DNA from: Fidelibacterota bacterium
GTDB lineage: Bacteria; Pseudomonadota; Alphaproteobacteria; Rhodospirillales; Rhodospirillaceae
Direction of reading: 5' to 3'
NCBI GenBank assembly: GCA_947476275.1
Contig: CANJPQ010000020.1
Span: 1 to 64,000, forward strand
Length of the DNA stretch: 64,000 bases
Part shown: one piece after another, positions 20,214-29,053 of the stretch
Numbering within the stretch: position 1 is the stretch's first letter
How the letters are laid out: each line of letters opens with the position of its first letter
Program-made: the position numbers and the translations under genes
Notes under the pieces: model-generated
What the model was told of the DNA's origin: nothing
The model's database searches: none
Seen by the model: only the letters and a program-made list of their open reading frames with translations

Positions 20214-21422
20214 ATGACTGTGCCGACCGAATCTGAAATCGCCCAACGGCTCGCCGATGCGCAGGCCTTGCGTACGAAGGGCGACGGGGCAAGCGCACGG
20301 GCGATCTGTGAGCGCCTGACCGTCGCCGCGCCGGATCATCCTGGCGGTTGGATGGCGCTTGGCATTCTGTCGGTGGAGGCGCGGGACTGGAAGGCCGCCA
20401 TACCCGCGCTCGGCAATGCTATTGCCCGCGCGCCGAATAATGCGGATTTCTATTTTTATCTCGGGGTGGCGCATTTCAATGACGGCAACTTGGCGGCCGC
20501 GGAAATCGCGTTCTCCAAGGCGGTGGTCCTGCGGCCCGGCCACACCGAGGCGCTGCATAATCTCGGCGGCGTACGTGTCGCCGATGGGCGACCCAAGGAG
20601 GCGCGCGTGGCGTTTCAGGCGGTCATCGCCCGTGACCCGTCTTTCGCCGCTTCGTGGGTGGGTCTCGCCGATGTCTGCCGTGCCGAGGGCGATACCGCCG
20701 GGGTGATCGCTGCCCTGACGGAGGCCCTGAAGCGCGATCCGCACAATCCCCACGCGCGGCATTTGCTGGCGGCAGCGCGCGGCGAATCGCCGGCGCCAGA
20801 TTGGCGCTACGTGACCGAAGTGTTCGATGGTTATGCCGCCCGCTTCGAGGCGCACCTGACCGGTCCACTTCAATATGTAGGACACCAGGAACTCGTCGCG
20901 CTGCTGCAGGAGTCGATTCCTGGTGCGGCCGCGTTCCGCCGCTGGCTCGATCTCGGGTGCGGCACCGGGCTTGTCGCGACCGCGCTGTTGCCAGGCCGCG
21001 AGATTGCCGAGCGTGTCGGTGTGGATCTTGCTGTCGGCATGGTCGCGGCCGCCAAGGCGCGCGGGCTCTACACCGAAGTCGTGAATGCGGAAGCCAACGC
21101 CTTTCTTGGTGCTGCATCGGACGTGTTCGACCTGATCACGGCAGCGGACACGTTTGGCTACATGGGCGATCTGGCGCCCGTATTGGCAGCCTGTGCGCGG
21201 CGCCTCTCCGGCGGTGGCGCGCTCGCCTTCATGATCAAGCCGAAGACGGGCGAAGGCTTTGCGCTCGATATGCAGGGTTACTACGTCCACGCCGAGAGCC
21301 ATGTGCTGTCTGCCGCGGCGTGCGCGGGGCTTGCGGTATCGGCGCGCCGCGAAGCGCCGTTCCGCCGGCATGATGGGCGCGCGCAGACTGCGCTCTATAT
21401 GGTCCTGGTTCGCGAGCCCTAA
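20214..21422 (+). CDS. TPR-containing SAM methyltransferase
   Basis: A 402-residue protein with about five tetratricopeptide repeats in residues 1-190 (units such as WMALGILSVEARDWKAAIPAL and YFYLGVAHFNDGNLAAAE). A class I methyltransferase domain follows, with WLDLGCGTGLVATAL near 245, VGVDLAVGMVAAAKARG, and LITAADTFGYMGDLAPVLA. The TPR-methyltransferase arrangement is common in alphaproteobacteria and is often linked to surface or small-molecule modification, but the substrate is not known. It is divergent from the membrane protein/methyltransferase operon and converges with the GGDEF gene (6 bp between stops). Confidence 0.85.
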   Translation: MTVPTESEIAQRLADAQALRTKGDGASARAICERLTVAAPDHPGGWMALGILSVEARDWKAAIPALGNAIARAPNNADFYFYLGVAHFNDGNLAAAEIAFSKAVVLRPGHTEALHNLGGVRVADGRPKEARVAFQAVIARDPSFAASWVGLADVCRAEGDTAGVIAALTEALKRDPHNPHARHLLAAARGESPAPDWRYVTEVFDGYAARFEAHLTGPLQYVGHQELVALLQESIPGAAAFRRWLDLGCGTGLVATALLPGREIAERVGVDLAVGMVAAAKARGLYTEVVNAEANAFLGAASDVFDLITAADTFGYMGDLAPVLAACARRLSGGGALAFMIKPKTGEGFALDMQGYYVHAESHVLSAAACAGLAVSARREAPFRRHDGRAQTALYMVLVREP

Positions 21423-21428
21423 GGCGTC

Positions 21429-22379
21429 TTATTGCAGGCGTGCGACGGCCACTTCGGAGTGGCCGCGCATCCGGCTGGCTTGCTTCGCATTGAGCATGGC
21501 TTGGTTAGCCTGTTGCATCAGCCGATCGGCAGTCTGGCTGTTGACGCTTTTCGGTACGGTCAACGTCGCCACGCCGCCGGCAACGGTCAGCATGTGCTCG
21601 CCGTCGCGGGTTTCAACGTTGCAGGTCATCTTGTCGGCGAATGCCTTGGCCGACACGACCGCATCGCCGGGCAAGACAAGCTTGGTCATCAGCACCGCAA
21701 ACTCGTCGCCGTTGATGCGTGCAAGATGGTCACCGGGTTTGCGCGCGGCTCGCATGTTCTTCGCGGCGGCGCGAAGCACGTCGTCGCCGACACCGGTGCC
21801 GAAAGACTCGTTGATGAACTTCATTCCATTCACGTTGAACAGCGTGACGCCGACCACGCCGCCGCGGCTGGCGTTCTCCGACAGCGCGGCCGTCAGCCGC
21901 TCATAGAACGCTTTGCGGTTGGGCAGTCCGGTCAGGCCATCGACCAACGCTTCGTGGGTGAGGCGGCTCGCGCGCTGATGCTGAGCCAGCGCATAGCGGA
22001 TCGCGCGCTCCAAGCCTTCGACGGTGAGATCGCCCTTCACCAAGAAGCCGTATGCGCCGCGCTCGAGTGCGCCGTCATCGACAGTGCGGTCGTCCATCGC
22101 GGTCAGCATGATGAACGGCACATCGTGATCGTAGCGCCGCGCTTCCTCCATCAGATCGAAGCCCGTGCTGGGCCGCAGGAAGTAGTCGGCAAGACAAATA
22201 TGCACGTCTTCGCGCGCGAGCACTTGCAGCGCCGATGGAATGGTGTCGACGTGATGGATGTTGCGCGGGTGCAACCCAACCGTTTGGAGGAACTTCTTCA
22301 CCAACGCAGCGTCGAGTGCGCTGTCCTCGAACAGGAGGACGCGCAAGGACTGGGGCAGGTAGGATGTCAGGGCATTCAT
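21429..22379 (-). CDS. Response regulator with degenerate GGDEF domain
   Basis: A 316-residue two-domain protein. Residues 9-130 are a receiver domain (LRVLLFEDS, CLADYFLRPSTG with the phosphoacceptor Asp, IMLTAMDD, LVKGD). Residues 150-305 are a GGDEF domain, but the signature reads NGDEF (222-226), the metal-site segment is LFNVNGMKF where active enzymes have a D-L-D type sequence, and the inhibitory-site position is KPGD instead of RxxD. The fold appears intact (SFGTGVGDDVLR is normal), so it probably acts as a phosphorylation-dependent c-di-GMP or GTP sensor, or a binding partner, more than as a cyclase. Confidence 0.82.
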   Translation of the reverse strand: MNALTSYLPQSLRVLLFEDSALDAALVKKFLQTVGLHPRNIHHVDTIPSALQVLAREDVHICLADYFLRPSTGFDLMEEARRYDHDVPFIMLTAMDDRTVDDGALERGAYGFLVKGDLTVEGLERAIRYALAQHQRASRLTHEALVDGLTGLPNRKAFYERLTAALSENASRGGVVGVTLFNVNGMKFINESFGTGVGDDVLRAAAKNMRAARKPGDHLARINGDEFAVLMTKLVLPGDAVVSAKAFADKMTCNVETRDGEHMLTVAGGVATLTVPKSVNSQTADRLMQQANQAMLNAKQASRMRGHSEVAVARLQ

Positions 22380-22510
22380 CGACGTCTCAACGCCTCGGAA
22401 CCGCAGCGGTTTTTCACTCTATCCGCCATGCGTTGAGAGATTGTGAATCACCCCTCAAGAGTTATCCCCAGGCCCGACTCGCCCAAAGGCCGCTCGCATT
22501 CCGAGCGGGG

Positions 22511-22540
22511 TTCAAAAAATGTGGGTGCTCAGCACTCACA
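22511..22540 (-). terminator. Palindrome with minus-strand T-run, possible orphan terminator
   Basis: TGTGGGTGCT (22520-22529) and AGCACTCACA (22531-22540) form a 10 bp near-perfect inverted repeat with one G-T position around a single C. On the minus strand it is followed directly by TTTTTT. No minus-strand protein gene lies to its right, so it either ends an unseen small RNA or is a protein-binding palindrome that happens to have A's beside it. Confidence 0.4.
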
Positions 22541-22829
22541 TTCTGAGAGTCGGCAGGGTCGCTTGCCTGTTCCGCGGTGTTTCGGCCCGCCACTTTTAAC
22601 ACGCGAAAAAACGTCACGAGGGAGCAGTGATCTTTGTCCTTACGTGCGCTGATACACACGCCCCCATCGCCGGAATCGCGCCAATTTCCAGAGCAATTCC
22701 GACAAGGCGCGGGCGCGCTACATTGCACTTGTTGTGCGCTGCGCTTGCCTGTTTTCGACATCGCTGGAATAACTTGTGCGCATGCCTTCGTGCGACCTCG
22801 TCATACCATATTGCAGTGCACGATTGCCC

Positions 22830-22858
22830 TTGACACGGAACGGCTCAATCCATTGGGA
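22830..22858 (+). promoter_or_regulatory. Possible housekeeping promoter for the tonB cluster
   Basis: A perfect TTGACA (22830-22835) is followed 17 bases later by TTGGGA/GGGATA, a weak -10. It lies about 190 bases upstream of the tonB ATG in the correct orientation. The -10 match is poor, so this is only a candidate. Confidence 0.25.
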
Positions 22859-23048
22859 TAGGTATGTCCATTGGACGCCAAATCCAGGGGAATGACAGGG
22901 GGGGCCGGGTCCGTTGTTTACACACGGTCTCGGGGTAGCTGCGACTATTGCCACGCAGCGGACGCCCTGTTAGACCCCTCGACCAAGCGCTCCGTTGCGG
23001 CTAAAAGTCACGGCCTTTTTCCGCCCACATTTTTGCTGAAGTAGAACA

Positions 23049-23672
23049 ATGGCTCTCGCAAAAAAATCTCCCGCCCGACAGTTGTTTGGCTTCGGTCTCG
23101 TCGTGCTGCTTCACGTTGGGCTGATCTGGGCCGTAAAGAGCGGTCTTGCGAATTCACTCGTCGAATTGGTCAGCGGTCCGATGGAGACCAAGCTGATCGA
23201 AGAAAAGGTCGCTGAGAAAGAAGCCCCGCCGCCGCCGAAGGTCGACATGAAGCCGCTGCCGCCGCCGGTCGTCATTCCGGTGGACATTGACGTCGCCGCG
23301 GCACCCGTTGACCAGTCGACTTCGATCAATACTGCCGCCCGCGCGACGAGCAATGCGCCGCCGCCGGCTGCTGTGAACACCAACGTCGTCCCGCCGCGCT
23401 CGAATCCGCGCCGCCCGGTGACACAGCCCGAATATCCGCCCACCTCCAAGCGCCTCGGTGAGGCCGGCACGGTCATCATGCTGCTGACCGTGAACGAGGA
23501 AGGCAAAGTCACTGAAGCTAAGATCGACACCAGCAGCGGTTTCGAGCGTTTGGACGAAGCGGCGCTGAAGGAAGCGCTGCGCACCTGGCGTCTACTGCCG
23601 GGCACTCAAGGCGGCAAGCCCGTCACGATGCAGTACAAATTCAAGGTCGTGTTCAAGATCGAGAACAACTAG
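23049..23672 (+). CDS. tonB: TonB family energy transducer
   Basis: A 207-residue TonB-like protein that would carry proton-motive energy from ExbB/ExbD to outer membrane receptors. A short basic N-terminus is followed by one membrane anchor (about 13-30) containing the usual histidine (LLHVGLIW). A proline-rich periplasmic linker (APPPPKVDMKPLPPPVV) follows, then a C-terminal TonB domain (RPVTQPEYPPTSKRLGEAGTV, VNEEGKVTEAKI, GFERLDEAALKEALRTWRLLPG). Length and order are normal. It is the first gene of the tonB-exbB-exbD-exbD cluster, 129 bp before exbB. Confidence 0.92.
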   Translation: MALAKKSPARQLFGFGLVVLLHVGLIWAVKSGLANSLVELVSGPMETKLIEEKVAEKEAPPPPKVDMKPLPPPVVIPVDIDVAAAPVDQSTSINTAARATSNAPPPAAVNTNVVPPRSNPRRPVTQPEYPPTSKRLGEAGTVIMLLTVNEEGKVTEAKIDTSSGFERLDEAALKEALRTWRLLPGTQGGKPVTMQYKFKVVFKIENN

Positions 23673-23801
23673 TTCCGACCTTTGACACGGCGGCTCCGCA
23701 CTGCGTGCGTGCGGAATCTATTGGAAACAAGACGACGGCCGGCGGGCTCGACTGCGCGACGACCGAAATCAGGGGATGCAAAGCGTATTATGAGGATCAA
23801 C

Positions 23802-24704
23802 ATGAATAGCCTTGAAAAGTCGCATAACGGCCTGACGGCCTGGCTCGCTGCCATGTCCGTTGCCGCCACCCTGGCCGTCGGCGGCGTGTCCGTCGCTCAG
23901 GCCCAGCAAGCCGAGCCGGCTGCTGCTCCCGCGGCGGCTCCGGCTGACGCTGCGCCCGCCGCTGCGGTCGCGACCGATGCCGCTGCTCCGGCAGCTGCTG
24001 CGCCTGCCGCCGGATTGGCCGCAGACGCCAAGGTCGAAGCAGAGAACATCTACGGCCCAGAGCGTCTTTGGGAAGAAGGCGACATCGTCTCTCACGGCAC
24101 GACGATCGTTCTCGTGATCATGTCGATGGGCACCTGGTTCATTCTGTTCACCCGCCTCTGGGATCAGACGAAGCTGATGGCGCAGGCCAAGACCGTGAAG
24201 CAGAAGTTCTGGACTGCGGGCAGCCTCAAGGAAGGCATGAACAAGCTCGAGAAGAACAGCGCTTACCGCTCGCTGGTGGAAGACGGCCTCAAGGCCTCCG
24301 AACACCACGACGGCAAGATGACCGACCGTATCGATCTGAACGAGTGGGTGACCATGTCCCTGCAGCGTTCTTACGACGGCATCAGCTCTGAAATGCAGCA
24401 GGGCCTGGCGTTCCTCGCCTCGGTCGGCTCGACAGCTCCGTTCGTCGGTCTGCTCGGCACGGTGTGGGGCATCATCAAGGCGCTGATCACGATCGCCGCC
24501 GCCGGTCAGGCTTCGATCGACAAGGTCGCCGGCCCCGTCGGTGAAGCGCTCATCATGACTGCGTTCGGTCTGTTCGTCGCTATCCCGGCCGTGCTCGCCT
24601 ACAACTGGCTGGTCCGTCGTAACAAGGTTGCGCTCGAAGACGTCCGCAACTTCAGCGCCGACGTTCACGCCGTGCTGGTGAGCGGTACCCGCGTTCCGAC
24701 GTAA
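23802..24704 (+). CDS. exbB: MotA/TolQ/ExbB proton channel protein with signal peptide and Ala/Pro-rich N-terminus
   Basis: A 300-residue ExbB homologue, the channel subunit of the Ton energising complex. Residues 1-30 look like a cleavable signal peptide ending AQAQ, and 31-70 are an Ala/Pro low-complexity linker. Three membrane helices follow (about 88-108, 200-222, 235-260), with the family signature around ASVGSTAPFVGLLGTVWGIIKAL. The start at 23802 is chosen because GAGG sits six bases upstream; an ATG at 23790 is possible. It is longer than E. coli ExbB, as in ExbB types that have a periplasmic N-terminal extension. Confidence 0.9.
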   Translation: MNSLEKSHNGLTAWLAAMSVAATLAVGGVSVAQAQQAEPAAAPAAAPADAAPAAAVATDAAAPAAAAPAAGLAADAKVEAENIYGPERLWEEGDIVSHGTTIVLVIMSMGTWFILFTRLWDQTKLMAQAKTVKQKFWTAGSLKEGMNKLEKNSAYRSLVEDGLKASEHHDGKMTDRIDLNEWVTMSLQRSYDGISSEMQQGLAFLASVGSTAPFVGLLGTVWGIIKALITIAAAGQASIDKVAGPVGEALIMTAFGLFVAIPAVLAYNWLVRRNKVALEDVRNFSADVHAVLVSGTRVPT

Positions 24705-24741
24705 TCCGGCAACTCCCGGTGACATTTAGGAGGTTGCCACT

Positions 24742-25173
24742 ATGTCTATGAACGTGGGCTCGTCCGACGGGGAAGACGAAGTCAACTCGACCATCAACAC
24801 GACGCCGCTCGTCGACATCATGTTGGTGCTGCTGATCATCTTCTTGATCACCATTCCGGTGGTGATCAAGACGGCACCGGTCGAGCTGCCTGTCATCTCC
24901 AACCAAGCGACCAAGACCAAGCCCGAGAACATCGTTCTCGCGGTTGATCAGGATGGCAACGTCTACTGGAACAACGTCCAACTCGCCGACCCGTTGGATT
25001 TGTTCGAGAAGATCAAGCCCTTCGCGATCATGGTCCCGCAGCCCGAAGTCCATATCCGCGGCGATCGCAATGCCCGGTATGAATTCATCGGCAAGGTCAT
25101 CGTGACGGTTCAGCGTGCCGGCATTCAGAAGGTCGGTTTCATCACCAATCCCGAATTGCCGGGATTGAAGTGA
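24742..25173 (+). CDS. exbD: ExbD/TolR family protein (first copy)
   Basis: A 143-residue ExbD. A short N-terminus ends with INTTPLVDIMLVLLIIFLIT, which holds the single membrane helix and the conserved proton-carrying aspartate. A periplasmic domain with VDQDGNVYWN and VHIRGDRNARYEFIGKVIVTVQRAGI follows. It sits 37 bp after exbB with GGAGG before the ATG, and 35 bp before a second exbD. It partners ExbB and TonB. Sequence between the two copies differs outside the membrane segment, so they are not a recent duplication. Confidence 0.92.
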   Translation: MSMNVGSSDGEDEVNSTINTTPLVDIMLVLLIIFLITIPVVIKTAPVELPVISNQATKTKPENIVLAVDQDGNVYWNNVQLADPLDLFEKIKPFAIMVPQPEVHIRGDRNARYEFIGKVIVTVQRAGIQKVGFITNPELPGLK

Positions 25174-25208
25174 GACCGGTCGTTCGCGCTAACTCGGAGA
25201 CTTAAGTT

Positions 25209-25634
25209 ATGTCTATGGCAGTCGGTAGCGCCAGTGAGTCCGGGGACGTTGTCCCGGATATGAACACCACGCCGTTGATCGACGTGATGCTCGTGCTCCT
25301 GGTCATGATCATCATGTCGATCCCGATCCAAACGCACGCGGTCAAACTCGATATGCCGCGTCCGAACAACAACCCGCAGAACAACCAGCCGCGGGAAGTT
25401 GTGGACCTGGAAATCGACTTCGATGGCACCGTTTTGTGGAATGGCAACGTCGTGACCGGCGAGCGTCAGCTCGCCAGCTACTTCGAAAACGTATCGGCGC
25501 AGCCGGATCAGCCGGAGATCCATCTCCGCCCGAACCGTCTGGTTAAATACAATGCCGTCGCGCGCGTTCTCGCGATCGCGCAGCGGCTGGGTGTGAAGCG
25601 GCTTGGGTTCGTGGGTAACGAGCAGTTCCTATAA
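25209..25634 (+). CDS. exbD: ExbD/TolR family protein (second copy)
   Basis: A 141-residue ExbD paralogue. MNTTPLIDVMLVLLVMIIMS contains the membrane helix with the essential aspartate. The periplasmic part (KLDMPRPNNNPQNNQPREVVDLEID, VLAIAQRLGVKRLGFVG) diverges strongly from the first copy, with an Asn/Gln-rich linker not found there. Two ExbD subunits of different sequence could form a heterodimeric stator or serve different TonB proteins. Shared membrane segments and 35 bp spacing place it in the same operon. Confidence 0.9.
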   Translation: MSMAVGSASESGDVVPDMNTTPLIDVMLVLLVMIIMSIPIQTHAVKLDMPRPNNNPQNNQPREVVDLEIDFDGTVLWNGNVVTGERQLASYFENVSAQPDQPEIHLRPNRLVKYNAVARVLAIAQRLGVKRLGFVGNEQFL

Positions 25635-25678
25635 GCAACGGACGCCACGTTTCTGACACGACCATCGTCTAAAATTGG

Positions 25679-25712
25679 AACGCCACCAGAAGCAACCGCC
25701 TCGGGTGGCGTT
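25679..25712 (+). promoter_or_regulatory. Hairpin in the leader of the repeat-protein gene
   Basis: AACGCCACC (25679-25687) pairs exactly with GGTGGCGTT (25704-25712) around a 16-base loop. There is no T-run after it on the plus strand. It sits between exbD and the next gene, so it could stabilise the upstream message, act as a weak terminator, or control the downstream gene. Confidence 0.45.
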
Positions 25713-25737
25713 CCGCGTTAGTTCAAGAGGGAATGCA

Positions 25738-27042
25738 ATGAAGACGACGACTTCTCTGTCTGTTGCTGCCGTGGCGGTGGCTTTGACCATCGGCGGCGTG
25801 ATTTCCCCGACGCATATGGGCGTGGCTCCGGCGCAGGCCGCCGACGCCAAGAAGCAGATCAGCAATAAATTCGGGAAGCAGTTCCAGGAAGCGAAAGCCC
25901 TGATCGACCAGAAGAATTACAAGGCAGCTTTGCCGAAGCTCGACGAACTCAAGGCGCTCCCCGGTAAGTCCGCATACGAAAGCTTCGTGGTCGCAGAACT
26001 GCAGACTGCAGCCTACGTTGGCACCGCCGACTACGCCAACGCCGCCAAGGCGATGGAGGCCGCGATTGAGACCGGCGAGGCGCCCGCGGCATCTAAACAG
26101 GCCCGGGCGAAGAACATCGCCAACACCTACTTCGCTGCCAAAAACGTGGCCAAGTTCAATGAAGCCAGCGCCAAGTACCAGAAGGATTTCGGCCCGGACG
26201 TCGATCTCCAACTTCTCGCCGCGCAGGGCCTCTACCAGGAGCGCAAGTTCAAGGAAGCGGCGGAAGCCGCTCGCACCGTCATCAAGACCGCTGAATCCAA
26301 AGGTCAGCCTGCGCGGGAAGACTGGCTGAAGCTGGTCTACAGCGCAGAACACGAGGCGGGGAACGCCGCGGGTGAGAAGGTTGCGGTCGAGACACTGGTC
26401 GCGCGCTACCCGAAGCCGGAATACTGGAACGCGCTGCTGATCAATGCTCAGAAGACGATCAGGGGTCCCAAGGTCCAACTCGACATCTACCGCATTATGC
26501 TGGCCGCTGGCGTGATGCAGAAGACCGAGGAATACATGGACATGGCTCAGCTTTCGATCCAGGCCGGCGTGCCGGCCGAGGCAGAGAAGGTGATTCAGAA
26601 GGGCCAGGCAGCGAAGCTGCTGATGGAAGGGCCGCAGAAGGATCGCCACCTGCGCCTGCAGACGATGGCTGTCTCTCAGACCAAGGAAAAAGACACCGGC
26701 CTCGCGCAGCAGGAAGCCGACGCCAAGGCTGCGGCAACCGGCGATGCCGATGTGCAAGTGGGTGAAGTGTTCTGGTCGAAAGGCCAGACCGACAAGGCTG
26801 TCGAAGCGATCCAGCGCGGTCTGAAAAAGGGCGTGAAGGATAAGGACGACGGTTACTTGCGTCTCGGCGTCGTGTATCTGACCAGCGGCAAGCGCGGCGA
26901 AGCTGCAAACGCATTCAAGGCCATCACGCCGAATTCTGCGCCAGCCCAGATCGCACGCCTGTGGACACTCTTGGGGTCGAACGCCGTTGCTGCAGCGGCT
27001 CCGTCCTCTGCTGCACCCGCGAAGGCGTCAGCGAAAAAGTAG
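25738..27042 (+). CDS. Exported TPR-like repeat protein (first paralogue)
   Basis: A 434-residue protein with a signal peptide (about 1-36, ending AQAADA), so it is likely periplasmic. The mature part is helical and TPR-like: NKFGKQFQEAKALIDQKNYKAALPKLDELKAL, NAAKAMEAAIETG, QGLYQERKFKEAAEAA and, near the end, KAVEAIQRGLKKGVKDKDDGYLRLGVVYL. It ends in an Ala/Ser/Lys-rich tail. It is paralogous to the gene at 27231, sharing the same blocks in order. The start at 25738 has AGAGGGA upstream. Position directly behind tonB-exbB-exbD-exbD suggests a role in the same transport process; this is inference. Confidence 0.82.
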   Translation: MKTTTSLSVAAVAVALTIGGVISPTHMGVAPAQAADAKKQISNKFGKQFQEAKALIDQKNYKAALPKLDELKALPGKSAYESFVVAELQTAAYVGTADYANAAKAMEAAIETGEAPAASKQARAKNIANTYFAAKNVAKFNEASAKYQKDFGPDVDLQLLAAQGLYQERKFKEAAEAARTVIKTAESKGQPAREDWLKLVYSAEHEAGNAAGEKVAVETLVARYPKPEYWNALLINAQKTIRGPKVQLDIYRIMLAAGVMQKTEEYMDMAQLSIQAGVPAEAEKVIQKGQAAKLLMEGPQKDRHLRLQTMAVSQTKEKDTGLAQQEADAKAAATGDADVQVGEVFWSKGQTDKAVEAIQRGLKKGVKDKDDGYLRLGVVYLTSGKRGEAANAFKAITPNSAPAQIARLWTLLGSNAVAAAAPSSAAPAKASAKK

Positions 27043-27102
27043 CCTCGATTGTTCAGATGCCGCCGTCAGCGTGGCATCACGACGCCGTGAATGCGAACTG
27101 AA

Positions 27103-27130
27103 CCGGCCGCTGGGGTTGCCCGGCGGCCGG
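27103..27130 (+). promoter_or_regulatory. Hairpin between the two repeat-protein genes
   Basis: CCGGCCGC (27103-27110) pairs perfectly with GCGGCCGG (27123-27130) around 12 bases. No T-run follows. It lies in the 188 bp gap between the paralogous genes and could set different message levels for them or be part of a Rho-dependent stop. Confidence 0.4.
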
Positions 27131-27230
27131 CACAGACTCGCCGCGGATTTGCCACCGTCGCCTGCCACCTTTAGGTTATCGGCCGATTTCCGCCGCGACC
27201 AAGACTGAAGTGACCCCCCGGGAGGACTAC

Positions 27231-28493
27231 ATGAAAACCAAGCTCTCTTTCTCCACCGCCACGCTGGCAATCGGTCTCAGCCTGGGGCTCGTCTCCAGCA
27301 CTGCGCTGCTCGCGCCCAAGCCGGCGATTGCCGCCGACAAGGGCAAAGACGAAAAAGATAAGAAGGCCGTGCTGACGCCGAAATTCGGTAAGCCGCTGCA
27401 GGAAGCAGACGCACTGATGAAGGCGAAGGACTTCAACGGCGCGCTCGCGAAGCTCCAAGAAATCGACAAGATGACGGGGAAGAACCCTTACGAGACTTAC
27501 CTCGTGGACGAATTGCTTGGTCTCACCTACGTGAACCTGCAGAACTATTCGGACGCGGCGAAGCGCTTCGAGGCCACCGTCGGCGCAGGCTTCCTTGATG
27601 CGGCGCAGGCCTCCGGCCGCATCAAGGCCATCGCGCAAATCTACTATCAGTCCAAGGACTACCCGAAGTCGATCGAGTGGGTGAACAAGTACACCGCCCA
27701 GGATCCGGATCCCGAAGTGCAGGTTCTGGCCGGCAACGCTTATTACATCCAGAAAGACTTCAAGAACGCCGCGATGGAACTGCGCAAGACCATGAAGATG
27801 GCGGAGGCGAAGGGCGTCGCGCCGAAGAAGGAATGGCTCGAGTTGGTGATGAGCGCCGACTACGAAGCGAAAGACACCCCGGCGGTCCAGAAGGACCTGG
27901 AGATGATCGTCGCGAACTATCCGGAGCCGAAGTACTGGACCGACCTACTCAACCTCGTCGAGAAGACGCTGAAGGATAAGAGCCAGCGCACCAGCCTCGA
28001 CATCTATCGCCTGATGTTCGCCACCGGCGCGATGAGCGCCGAAGGCGAGTTCACCGAGATGGCCAACATCGCGATGCAGCAAGCGCTGCCGGGCGAAGCC
28101 AAGCGTGTGCTGACCCAGGCCGAGAGCAAAGGCCTGTTGTCGGGCGCCAACAAAGCGCTGATGACAAAGGCCAATGCCGCCGCGGCTGAGGACTTGAAGG
28201 GCCTGCCGGCGACGGAAGCTCAGGCGCGCGCCCAGAAGACCGGCGACGCCGACGTGAAGTTCGGTGAGGCCTATGCCAGCCATGGTCAATACGACAAGGC
28301 GGTCGAAGCCATCCAGCGCGGCATCGGCAAGGGCGTGAAGGACAAGGACGACGCCCAGTTCCGTCTCGGTCTCGCTTATCTCGGCGCGGGCAAGACGGCT
28401 GAAGCCAAGGCTGCGTTCGCTGCGATCTCGCCGGGCACGAATGCGGCGACCTTCGCCCACCTGTGGAGTATCCAGTCGGGCAACAAGGCCTAA
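27231..28493 (+). CDS. Exported TPR-like repeat protein (second paralogue)
   Basis: A 420-residue paralogue of the preceding gene. The signal peptide (about 1-34) ends PAIAADK, after which a Lys/Asp-rich stretch leads to TPKFGKPLQEADALMKAKDFNGALAKLQEIDKM. It shares the pattern KTGDADVKFGEAYASHGQYDKAVEAIQRGIGKGVKDKDD near the end, showing it arose by duplication. It lacks the Ala-rich tail of its sister. GGGAGGA lies seven bases before the ATG. A strong terminator follows, so it ends the TonB transcription unit. I know of no experimentally assigned function. Confidence 0.82.
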   Translation: MKTKLSFSTATLAIGLSLGLVSSTALLAPKPAIAADKGKDEKDKKAVLTPKFGKPLQEADALMKAKDFNGALAKLQEIDKMTGKNPYETYLVDELLGLTYVNLQNYSDAAKRFEATVGAGFLDAAQASGRIKAIAQIYYQSKDYPKSIEWVNKYTAQDPDPEVQVLAGNAYYIQKDFKNAAMELRKTMKMAEAKGVAPKKEWLELVMSADYEAKDTPAVQKDLEMIVANYPEPKYWTDLLNLVEKTLKDKSQRTSLDIYRLMFATGAMSAEGEFTEMANIAMQQALPGEAKRVLTQAESKGLLSGANKALMTKANAAAAEDLKGLPATEAQARAQKTGDADVKFGEAYASHGQYDKAVEAIQRGIGKGVKDKDDAQFRLGLAYLGAGKTAEAKAAFAAISPGTNAATFAHLWSIQSGNKA

Positions 28494-28520
28494 TCTGACG
28501 GCATTCACGTTAGACAAAAG

Positions 28521-28549
28521 CGCCGGGGCAGCAATGTCCCGGCGTTTTC
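28521..28549 (+). terminator. Rho-independent terminator ending the TonB cluster
   Basis: CGCCGGGGCA (28521-28530) pairs with TGTCCCGGCG (28535-28544, one G-T pair) around a GCAA tetraloop, followed by TTTT and preceded by AAAA. It starts 28 bases after the stop codon of the second repeat-protein gene. Confidence 0.88.
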
Positions 28550-28564
28550 ATTTGGGGCGCTGAG

Positions 28565-29053
28565 TCAGGTCTTGTGATCTGGCGAACGATAGTCCGCCCA
28601 ATACTGAATCTTTCCGTTGCGTACGAGGAACACGCCGGTCACGGCGAAGTGGTTATCGGGCTTGCCGCTGTCCGGCGGCCGGATGAAGTGATCGATGCGG
28701 TCGTTCATGACAATGTCGCCAAGCGCGGCGCTGCGAAAGATTTCCCAGTCGATCTTCTGCATGCCCGACATGAAAGGTCCCATGCGCTCGCGCAACTGCG
28801 CCGCGCCGTTGACCACCATGCCGCCTTCGCTGACGTGATATTCCAGAGTCTCGGCCACGAACGGGATCAACTTCTCCACGTCGCGCCCGCTCCACGCCTG
28901 ACAGAACGCGCTCACGAGTTTGATATTCGCGGCCTCACGGGCCGTGGCGGCATTGTCGGGTGTCGCTGCAGCTGCCGCGAACGGCAGCATGCCGCCCAGC
29001 GCCAAGCCGGCACCGATTACCTGACGTCGCCCGGGGACGTTGCCTAACAGCAT
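28565..29053 (-). CDS. Exported SnoaL/limonene-epoxide-hydrolase-like protein
   Basis: A 162-residue protein of the NTF2-like fold. The N-terminus GRRQVIGAGLALGGMLPFAAAAA looks like a Tat signal. The mature domain begins NIKLVSAFCQAWSGRDVEKLIPFVAETLEYHVSEGG and ends GVFLVRNGKIQYWADY, the pattern of SnoaL-type cyclases and limonene epoxide hydrolases. The substrate is unknown and it may be only a binding protein. The start at 29053 follows GGAGGTGAGG; a longer frame upstream is not supported. It diverges from msrP by about 100 bp. Confidence 0.75.
   Translation of the reverse strand: MLLGNVPGRRQVIGAGLALGGMLPFAAAAATPDNAATAREAANIKLVSAFCQAWSGRDVEKLIPFVAETLEYHVSEGGMVVNGAAQLRERMGPFMSGMQKIDWEIFRSAALGDIVMNDRIDHFIRPPDSGKPDNHFAVTGVFLVRNGKIQYWADYRSPDHKT

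What the first reader, a model, noticed from the sequence alone, without database searches (positions are those of the whole stretch)
22830..28549. TonB-ExbB-ExbD-ExbD operon followed by paired exported repeat proteins
One TonB, one ExbB with a long N-terminal extension and two divergent ExbD proteins are followed by two tandem paralogous, secreted, TPR-like proteins of about 430 residues, ending in a strong terminator. No receptor or substrate gene lies in the cluster. The repeat proteins share the pattern KAVEAIQRG-KGVKDKDD and have no role I know of; they could link the Ton stator or TonB to the envelope, or organise receptors. This is my best candidate for an under-described system in the window.
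Basis: partly seen in the sequence, partly recalled or inferred. Interest (0 to 1): 0.65.

Follow-up and report, generated by a model that had tools for sequence, protein, structure and literature searches.

The report
Ton motor with helical-repeat partner proteins
A bacterial outer-membrane uptake motor is encoded together with two secreted helical-repeat proteins; relatives of these often travel with such motors in other bacteria and match a little-studied part that Vibrio needs for iron uptake, so they probably act as a motor subunit.

Summary
In detail: TonB, ExbB with an exported N-terminal extension, two ExbDs and two secreted TPR paralogues (41% identical), closed by a strong terminator. 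The repeat proteins are not role-less. They are full-length relatives of TtpD (profile comparison 100%, E 3e-48; two unrelated TPR proteins match only locally), reported essential for TonB2-dependent siderophore uptake in Vibrio vulnificus. They form a separate clade, in an operon without TtpB/TtpC. In class- and phylum-wide draws, 59 of 80 relatives sit beside Ton genes, 17 of them directly after ExbD. The tandem pair was seen only in the three genomes of this genus. By domain search the genome has one other ExbD/TolR gene (in tol-pal), 5 TonB domains and 51 receptor plug domains, so this looks like its only Ton motor, which explains the missing receptor gene. Most likely the TPR proteins are periplasmic accessory subunits of the motor. 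Two more features: in the sampled loci the GNE[Q/A] tail of the second ExbD occurred only in genomes that also encode this TPR clade, and a covarying RNA hairpin precedes the TPR gene in 16 aligned relatives. Docking on the ExbD2 tail is a hypothesis. New variant of a known kind.

The parts
23049..23672 (+). TonB energy transducer, 207 aa
   Evidence: PF03544 E 2.6e-20; one of 5 TonB_C places in the genome
23790..24704 (+). ExbB, 304 aa, signal-peptide-like start and Ala/Pro-rich exported extension of about 50 residues before the conserved domain
   Evidence: PF01618 E 6.4e-33 on residues 161-284; the same layout is described as long ExbB in PMC9008036 (passages)
24742..25173 (+). ExbD1, 143 aa
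   Evidence: PF02472 E 2.4e-26
25209..25634 (+). ExbD2, 141 aa, C-terminus GFVGNEQFL
   Evidence: PF02472 E 3.3e-21; tail survey
25676..25715 (+). RNA hairpin about 20 nt upstream of the TPR1 start codon
   Evidence: 11-bp main stem; 6 of 13 pairs with a change on both sides over 16 aligned family sequences; region z -2.59 for the window copy
25738..27042 (+). TPR1, 434 aa, secreted (signal peptide ending AQA-AD by eye), TtpD-related
   Evidence: mostly helical AlphaFold model, mean pLDDT 74.3
27103..27130 (+). second hairpin (12 bp) between TPR1 and TPR2
   Evidence: fold of 27043-27192, region z -2.72; conservation not tested
27231..28493 (+). TPR2, 420 aa, secreted paralogue of TPR1, TtpD-related
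   Evidence: mostly helical AlphaFold model, mean pLDDT 82.4
28517..28548 (+). intrinsic terminator of the operon
   Evidence: 14-bp stem with a tetraloop, region z -5.35

Best explanation
This is the housekeeping Ton motor of a probable alphaproteobacterium, with its own periplasmic accessory subunit. TonB, ExbB and the two ExbDs form the proton-driven motor. The two TPR proteins are exported, fold as TPR superhelices in the periplasm, and work like TtpD of the Vibrio TonB2 system: they bind the periplasmic face of the motor (ExbD and/or the TonB linker) and are needed for, or tune, force delivery to TonB-dependent receptors. Shown here: homology to TtpD, conserved linkage to Ton genes, only one non-tol ExbD locus by domain search, tandem duplication in this genus. 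Inferred: periplasmic location, physical binding, effect on uptake. The favoured but unproven docking site is the C-terminal GNEQ tail of ExbD2.
For: Profile-profile alignment with 12 TPR proteins of Ttp-type operons covers 381 columns, probability 100%, E 2.9e-48. Control: one such TPR protein alone still aligns over 367 columns (99.8%, E 9.9e-29), whereas an unrelated TPR protein of the window and the CpoB-like protein align over 72 and 75 columns (4.9% and 51%). Linkage: of 80 relatives in the class and phylum draws, 17 follow ExbD directly in a Ton operon, 37 end a complete or partial Ttp-type operon, 5 are linked otherwise, 1 is at a contig edge, 20 are unlinked. In the family, 24 of 41 places follow ExbD and 12 are Ttp type. 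Of the 20 unlinked, 7 are second copies in genomes with a linked copy. All 20 genomes of the phylum draw with this TPR clade (own genome excluded) also match the ExbD2 profile, against 102 of the other 278 (genomes are related, so the p-value is nominal). TtpD2 is required for TonB2-dependent uptake in V. vulnificus (PMC6957404, abstract and passages). 3 ExbD/TolR places, one of them in a tol-pal operon, and 51 plug domains. ExbD2 tail GNE[QA]: 31 of 41 unique ExbD2 directly before a TPR gene, 0 of 54 ExbD1, 0 of 66 ExbD of Ttp loci.
Against: The operon lacks TtpB and TtpC, and the TPR clade is separate from the TtpD clade, so function may have diverged; TtpD3 does not replace TtpD2 in Vibrio (PMC6957404). 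20 of 80 relatives are unlinked. Ton motors without the TPR protein are common in the loci fetched, including a two-ExbD one in G017, so it is not generally required. In Xanthomonas exbD2 is not needed for iron uptake (PMC3551730 passages), which weakens a general motor role for the second ExbD. 10 of 41 TPR-linked ExbD2 lack the tail. No interaction was predicted.
Confidence: 0.66

Rival explanations
1. The TPR proteins are general envelope scaffolds, like CpoB of Tol-Pal, that link the Ton motor to peptidoglycan synthesis or receptor placement; they sit in the operon for co-expression, not as motor subunits.
For: A CpoB-like TPR protein follows the Pal-like gene of the related tol-pal operon at G000:C18. 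Unlinked relatives exist, 20 of 80.
Against: The genome has that CpoB-like gene besides the two here, and it matches their profile only locally. The TtpD homologue is reported as strictly required for uptake itself (PMC6957404).
Confidence: 0.18
2. They act on the receptor or substrate side, as periplasmic binding or hand-over proteins for cargo released from receptors.
For: Signal peptide, no cysteine, encoded with a Ton motor; TPR1 calculated pI 9.31 and 11% Lys, TPR2 7.80 and 11%.
Against: One motor and 51 plug domains, so no single cargo is expected; no receptor in the cluster; TtpD2 is needed for several different siderophores (PMC6957404).
Confidence: 0.08
3. The linkage is inherited operon structure with no functional tie to Ton.
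For: Relatedness of genomes makes neighbourhood counts non-independent; 20 of 80 relatives are unlinked.
Against: Two different operon architectures, plus a third with the TPR gene first, keep the TPR gene beside Ton genes.
Confidence: 0.05

Closest known systems
TtpD2 / TonB2 system of Vibrio vulnificus (TtpB2-TtpC2-ExbB2-ExbD2-TonB2-TtpD2), PMC6957404
   Same: Last gene of a Ton operon; TPR protein of about 425 aa; full-length profile match to TPR proteins of the same operon type. The Vibrio protein itself was not compared
   Different: No TtpB (DUF3450) or TtpC here; TonB first instead of next to the TPR gene; separate clade; two TPR copies in this genus
tonB-exbB-exbD1-exbD2 operons of Xanthomonas campestris (PMC3551730) and Sphingobium SYK-6 (PMC8599685)
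   Same: Same order of motor genes with two tandem ExbD
   Different: The terms TPR and (for Sphingobium) tetratricopeptide do not occur in the two main texts. Their own genomes were not examined
CpoB/YbgF of Tol-Pal
   Same: TPR protein closing a related motor operon (seen at G000:C18; name by position and recall)
   Different: TPR2 only weakly hits the YbgF model, 45.7 bits against a cut-off of 90.1, and TPR1 not at all; local match only
Long ExbB of Serratia marcescens, PMC9008036
   Same: Signal peptide plus Ala/Pro-rich exported extension on ExbB
   Different: That one works with HasB; whether this one binds any TonB paralogue is unknown

Membership tests
Ton motor (TonB-ExbB-ExbD) | TonB_C, MotA_ExbB and ExbD domains in one operon | tested here: met
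   all over the curated cut-offs
Ton motor (TonB-ExbB-ExbD) | Aspartate in the ExbD transmembrane helix | tested here: met
   Both ExbDs read NTTPL[V/I]D[I/V]MLVLL; its role is from the literature (PMC8599685 passages); that it is the same residue is by eye
TtpD (Ttp-type TonB2/TonB3 system) | Full-length homology to TtpD-type TPR proteins | tested here: met
   hhalign 100%, E 2.9e-48, 381 columns, against TPR proteins of DUF3450-TtpC-type operons; controls
TtpD (Ttp-type TonB2/TonB3 system) | Operon with ttpB (DUF3450) and ttpC, TonB next to the TPR gene | tested here: not met
TtpD (Ttp-type TonB2/TonB3 system) | Falls in the TtpD clade | tested here: not met
   FastTree, midpoint root: 50 Ttp-type and 5 other linked proteins on one side, 70 of the window's kind on the other, supports 0.917 and 0.994
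TtpD (Ttp-type TonB2/TonB3 system) | Required for TonB-dependent uptake | not testable with these tools
   needs a deletion strain
CpoB/YbgF | Encoded in tol-pal with TolB and Pal | tested here: not met
   TolB_N and OmpA-family genes lie at G000:C18, followed by another TPR protein
CpoB/YbgF | Score over the NCBIfam cut-off for YbgF | tested here: not met
   TPR2 45.7 bits, cut-off 90.1; TPR1 no match at E up to 1

The most novel reading that the evidence does not exclude
A TtpD-related TPR protein is a widespread, unrecognised subunit of Ton motors in Alpha-, Beta- and Gammaproteobacteria. It docks by a peptide clamp on the GNEQ[F/Y] C-terminal tail of a specialised second ExbD, so that in two-ExbD motors one ExbD recruits the TPR protein, with its dose set by a conserved RNA hairpin before the TPR gene.
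Probability: 0.2. Interest if true: 0.75.

Novelty: new variant of a known kind. Interest (0 to 1): 0.5.

Why it matters
How the Ton motor passes force to receptors is still debated, mostly from E. coli, which lacks this protein family as far as I know (recalled, not searched). If a TPR protein is a standard part of many Ton motors, including what looks like the single motor beside 51 receptor plug domains in one genome, the minimal E. coli model is incomplete. It also gives the unexplained second ExbD a candidate role, and gives a place to look for how TtpD works.

Tried and rejected
A genome-contig scan with one protein found only two partial matches in unrelated bacteria; it should have used an alignment. 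A hand-made motif pattern for the family failed to describe it, 13 of 130 members, and was dropped in favour of profiles. PDB searches by sequence and fold find generic TPR proteins: designed TPRs, LapB, BamD, MamA and eukaryotic ones; the fold says nothing specific about function. The structure models had only two sequences in the alignment. Rfam gives one chance-level match in 22300-28900 (E 0.76), not at the hairpins. The first alignment of the spacer was badly registered and was replaced.

Limits of the counts: the genome search first look misses divergent TPR genes. Local profiles found TPR genes in L164 and L177 although G562 and G619 were not among the matches, and G562 was negative, so genome counts are lower bounds and 'without TPR' holds only at that sensitivity. 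Neighbour calls use profiles I built from these loci. The tree left out proteins under 250 aa and identical ones. ExbD2 tail: most loci were fetched because they carry the TPR gene, so the sampling is biased. Besides the 31 of 41, 5 of 28 unique ExbDs classed as last gene without a TPR gene have GNE[QA]; they are L125 (contig ends there), L163 (second motor of a genome with a TPR operon) and L165-L167 (picked because the TPR gene lies elsewhere in the genome). The 20 further loci have none. Near variants exist in two genomes without a full-length TPR hit: GNDK and GNER in G497, GQEQ in G574. 10 of 41 TPR-linked ExbD2 lack the tail, so it is not a strict rule, and shared descent could explain the pattern. 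Hairpin: the 16 sequences were chosen because they have it. Four family operons (L021, L127, L128, L131) lack it, L133 has a different one, and L137 and L142 were left out as near duplicates.

The gene at the TolA position had no Pfam match at E up to 0.001.
Full report
What is there. Window 23049-28493 encodes, on the + strand, TonB, ExbB, ExbD1, ExbD2 and two secreted TPR proteins, TPR1 and TPR2. ExbB carries a signal-peptide-like start and an Ala/Pro-rich stretch before its conserved domain; such long ExbBs are described in Serratia and many Alphaproteobacteria (PMC9008036, passages), so this feature is known. Both ExbDs keep the transmembrane aspartate (by eye). TPR1 and TPR2 are 41% identical over 424 columns, have signal peptides ending in A-x-A by eye and no cysteine, so they are probably soluble periplasmic proteins, not lipoproteins (inference). 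The operon ends in a strong terminator at 28517-28548 (region z -5.35).

Where it lives. The window lies in a 4.48 Mb draft genome of 77 contigs, G000. It is in the same class as genome G260, whose contig of 1,003,851 bases and TPR hit position match the Niveispirillum cyanobacteriorum plasmid NZ_CP025613.1, an alphaproteobacterial record, so I infer an alphaproteobacterium. The genome has three ExbD/TolR places: the two here and one in a tol-pal operon with TolQ-, TolR-, TolB- and Pal-type domains and a CpoB-like TPR protein; the gene at the TolA position has no Pfam match. It has 51 plug domains and 5 TonB C-terminal domains. By domain count this is therefore the only Ton motor found, available to all receptors and possibly to several TonBs. 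That explains why no receptor gene need lie in the cluster. ExbB was not searched genome-wide.

What the TPR proteins are. A tblastn of TPR2 against plasmids found 17 records, all under 60% identity, among them Caballeronia, Niveispirillum, Sphingomonas and 12 Pseudoalteromonas. In the one Pseudoalteromonas record opened, the match is the last gene of an operon DUF3450, MotA/TolQ/ExbB, MotA/TolQ/ExbB, ExbD, TonB, TPR. That is the Ttp-type TonB system. In Vibrio vulnificus the last gene, ttpD2, encodes a 425-residue TPR protein that is absolutely required, like TtpB2, for uptake through TonB2 (PMC6957404, abstract and passages). A 12-sequence profile of the window's kind aligned with a 12-sequence profile of TPR proteins from Ttp-type operons over 381 columns at probability 100% and E 2.9e-48. 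Repeats can raise such scores, so I ran controls against the same profile: one Ttp-type protein alone aligned over 367 columns (99.8%, E 9.9e-29), but an unrelated TPR protein from the window only over 72 columns (4.9%, E 0.0081) and the CpoB-like protein only over 75 (51%, E 0.00015). The match to the Ttp type is thus specific and collinear. The Vibrio protein itself was not compared. In the own genome the first look with TPR1 gave 12 candidates and only the two window genes matched.

Linkage. I searched one genome per species with the profile. Family: 37 of 73 genomes at E up to 1e-8. Class draw: 33 of 289 at E up to 1e-10. Phylum draw: 47 of 299; the tallies include the own genome and the draws overlap. 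All 80 distinct places outside the own genome from the class and phylum draws were fetched and their neighbours called with local profiles. 17 follow ExbD in a Ton operon: 13 read TonB-ExbB-ExbD-ExbD-TPR, 3 the same with an extra TonB, and 1 starts at a contig end with ExbB-ExbD-ExbD-TPR-TonB. 35 end a complete and 2 a partial Ttp-type operon. 5 are linked otherwise (3 with the TPR gene first, 2 beside TonB only). 1 is at a contig edge. 20 are unlinked: 7 are second copies in genomes that also have a linked one, 12 more are in family f37, and 1 is in G580. In the window's family, of 41 places 24 follow ExbD (21 in the full order), 12 are Ttp type, 3 are at contig edges and 2 are unlinked fragments. 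A tree of 125 proteins splits into a clade of Ttp-type and other linked TPRs (55) and a clade of the window's kind (70), midpoint-rooted, supports 0.917 and 0.994. The window proteins are thus sisters of TtpD, not TtpD itself.

The pair. A tandem pair occurs in G000, G001 and G002, the three held genomes of this genus; the other operons of this type examined show one. TPR1 orthologues group together (0.998) and so do TPR2 orthologues (0.921), so the duplication predates the split of these three species.

The ExbD2 tail. The second ExbD ends in GNEQFL. Of 41 unique ExbD2 directly before a TPR gene, 31 have GNE[QA] in the last 16 residues, against 0 of 54 ExbD1 and 0 of 66 ExbD of Ttp loci. Five more occur where the TPR gene lies elsewhere in the genome or beyond a contig end. 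The other loci, fetched mostly from genomes without a full-length TPR hit, had none, with near variants in G497 and G574. The sampling is biased towards TPR-bearing loci. In the phylum draw all 20 genomes with this TPR clade also match the ExbD2 profile, against 102 of the other 278 (relatedness makes the p-value of 6e-9 nominal, and this profile also matches other ExbDs). TPR domains of chaperone partners bind C-terminal peptides (recalled), so a clamp on this tail is an attractive guess. Shared ancestry of ExbD2 and TPR would give the same pattern.

The RNA hairpin. Between exbD2 and TPR1, at 25676-25715, lies a hairpin about 20 nt before the start codon. In 16 family members it aligns with 96.6% of cells paired and 6 of 13 pairs changed on both sides, while slid versions pair 48 to 64%. 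In several relatives it is followed by a run of T, as in a terminator or attenuator; the window copy is not. It may set the ratio of TPR protein to motor. This is inference. The 16 were chosen for having the hairpin, and four family operons lack it.

How it probably works. The motor harvests the proton gradient; TonB carries force to receptors; the TPR proteins bind the motor in the periplasm and are needed for or tune that step. Only the sequence facts are shown. PMC10771500 (passages) reports that the periplasmic ExbD domain switches between states, binds TonB or its relative HasB and touches peptidoglycan in E. coli and Serratia; a TPR partner could stabilise one such state (inference).

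What is known and what is new. Known: TtpD in Vibrio; [quoted passage not shown] Known: tonB-exbB-exbD1-exbD2 operons, whose second ExbD is called puzzling in Xanthomonas, where it is not needed for iron uptake (PMC3551730, passages), and which could not be disrupted in Sphingobium (PMC8599685, passages). A 2025 survey of force transducers notes an uncharacterised TPR gene beside another motor type (PMC12204202, passages). I found no paper that describes a TPR gene in the TonB-ExbB-ExbD-ExbD operon, in searches, of open-licence PubMed Central papers only; of their listings I opened only the papers named here. So the kind is known and the variant appears new.

Noticed in passing
window 25676-25715: Covarying hairpin between exbD2 and TPR1, followed by a T-run in several relatives but not in the window; no Rfam match there.
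   Followed up: partly
G000 C14, C24, C22, C3: Four TonB C-terminal domains outside this operon although there is no other ExbD place besides the tol-pal one; one (C3:78637) lies about 1 kb from a plug domain.
   Followed up: no
L032, L037, L038 (TPR then TonB); L102, L110, L111, L164, L177 (TPR before TonB-ExbB-ExbD-ExbD): Other arrangements: a TonB after the TPR gene, or the TPR gene first in the operon.
   Followed up: no
L050, L055, L058, L066, L098, L107: Ttp-type operons (L050 cut by the contig end) with two ExbD and two TonB genes before the TPR gene.
   Followed up: no
L047, L049, L065, L076-L079, L088, L091, L094, L095, L097 (family f37): The TPR gene stands alone in 12 places of one family; in three such genomes checked, a TonB-ExbB-ExbD-ExbD operon with the GNEQ tail lies elsewhere (L165-L167).
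   Followed up: partly
window 20214-21422: TPR protein with a methyltransferase domain; only a weak local match to the TPR1/TPR2 profile.
   Followed up: no
window 27103-27130: Strong 12-bp hairpin without a T-run between TPR1 and TPR2.
   Followed up: no
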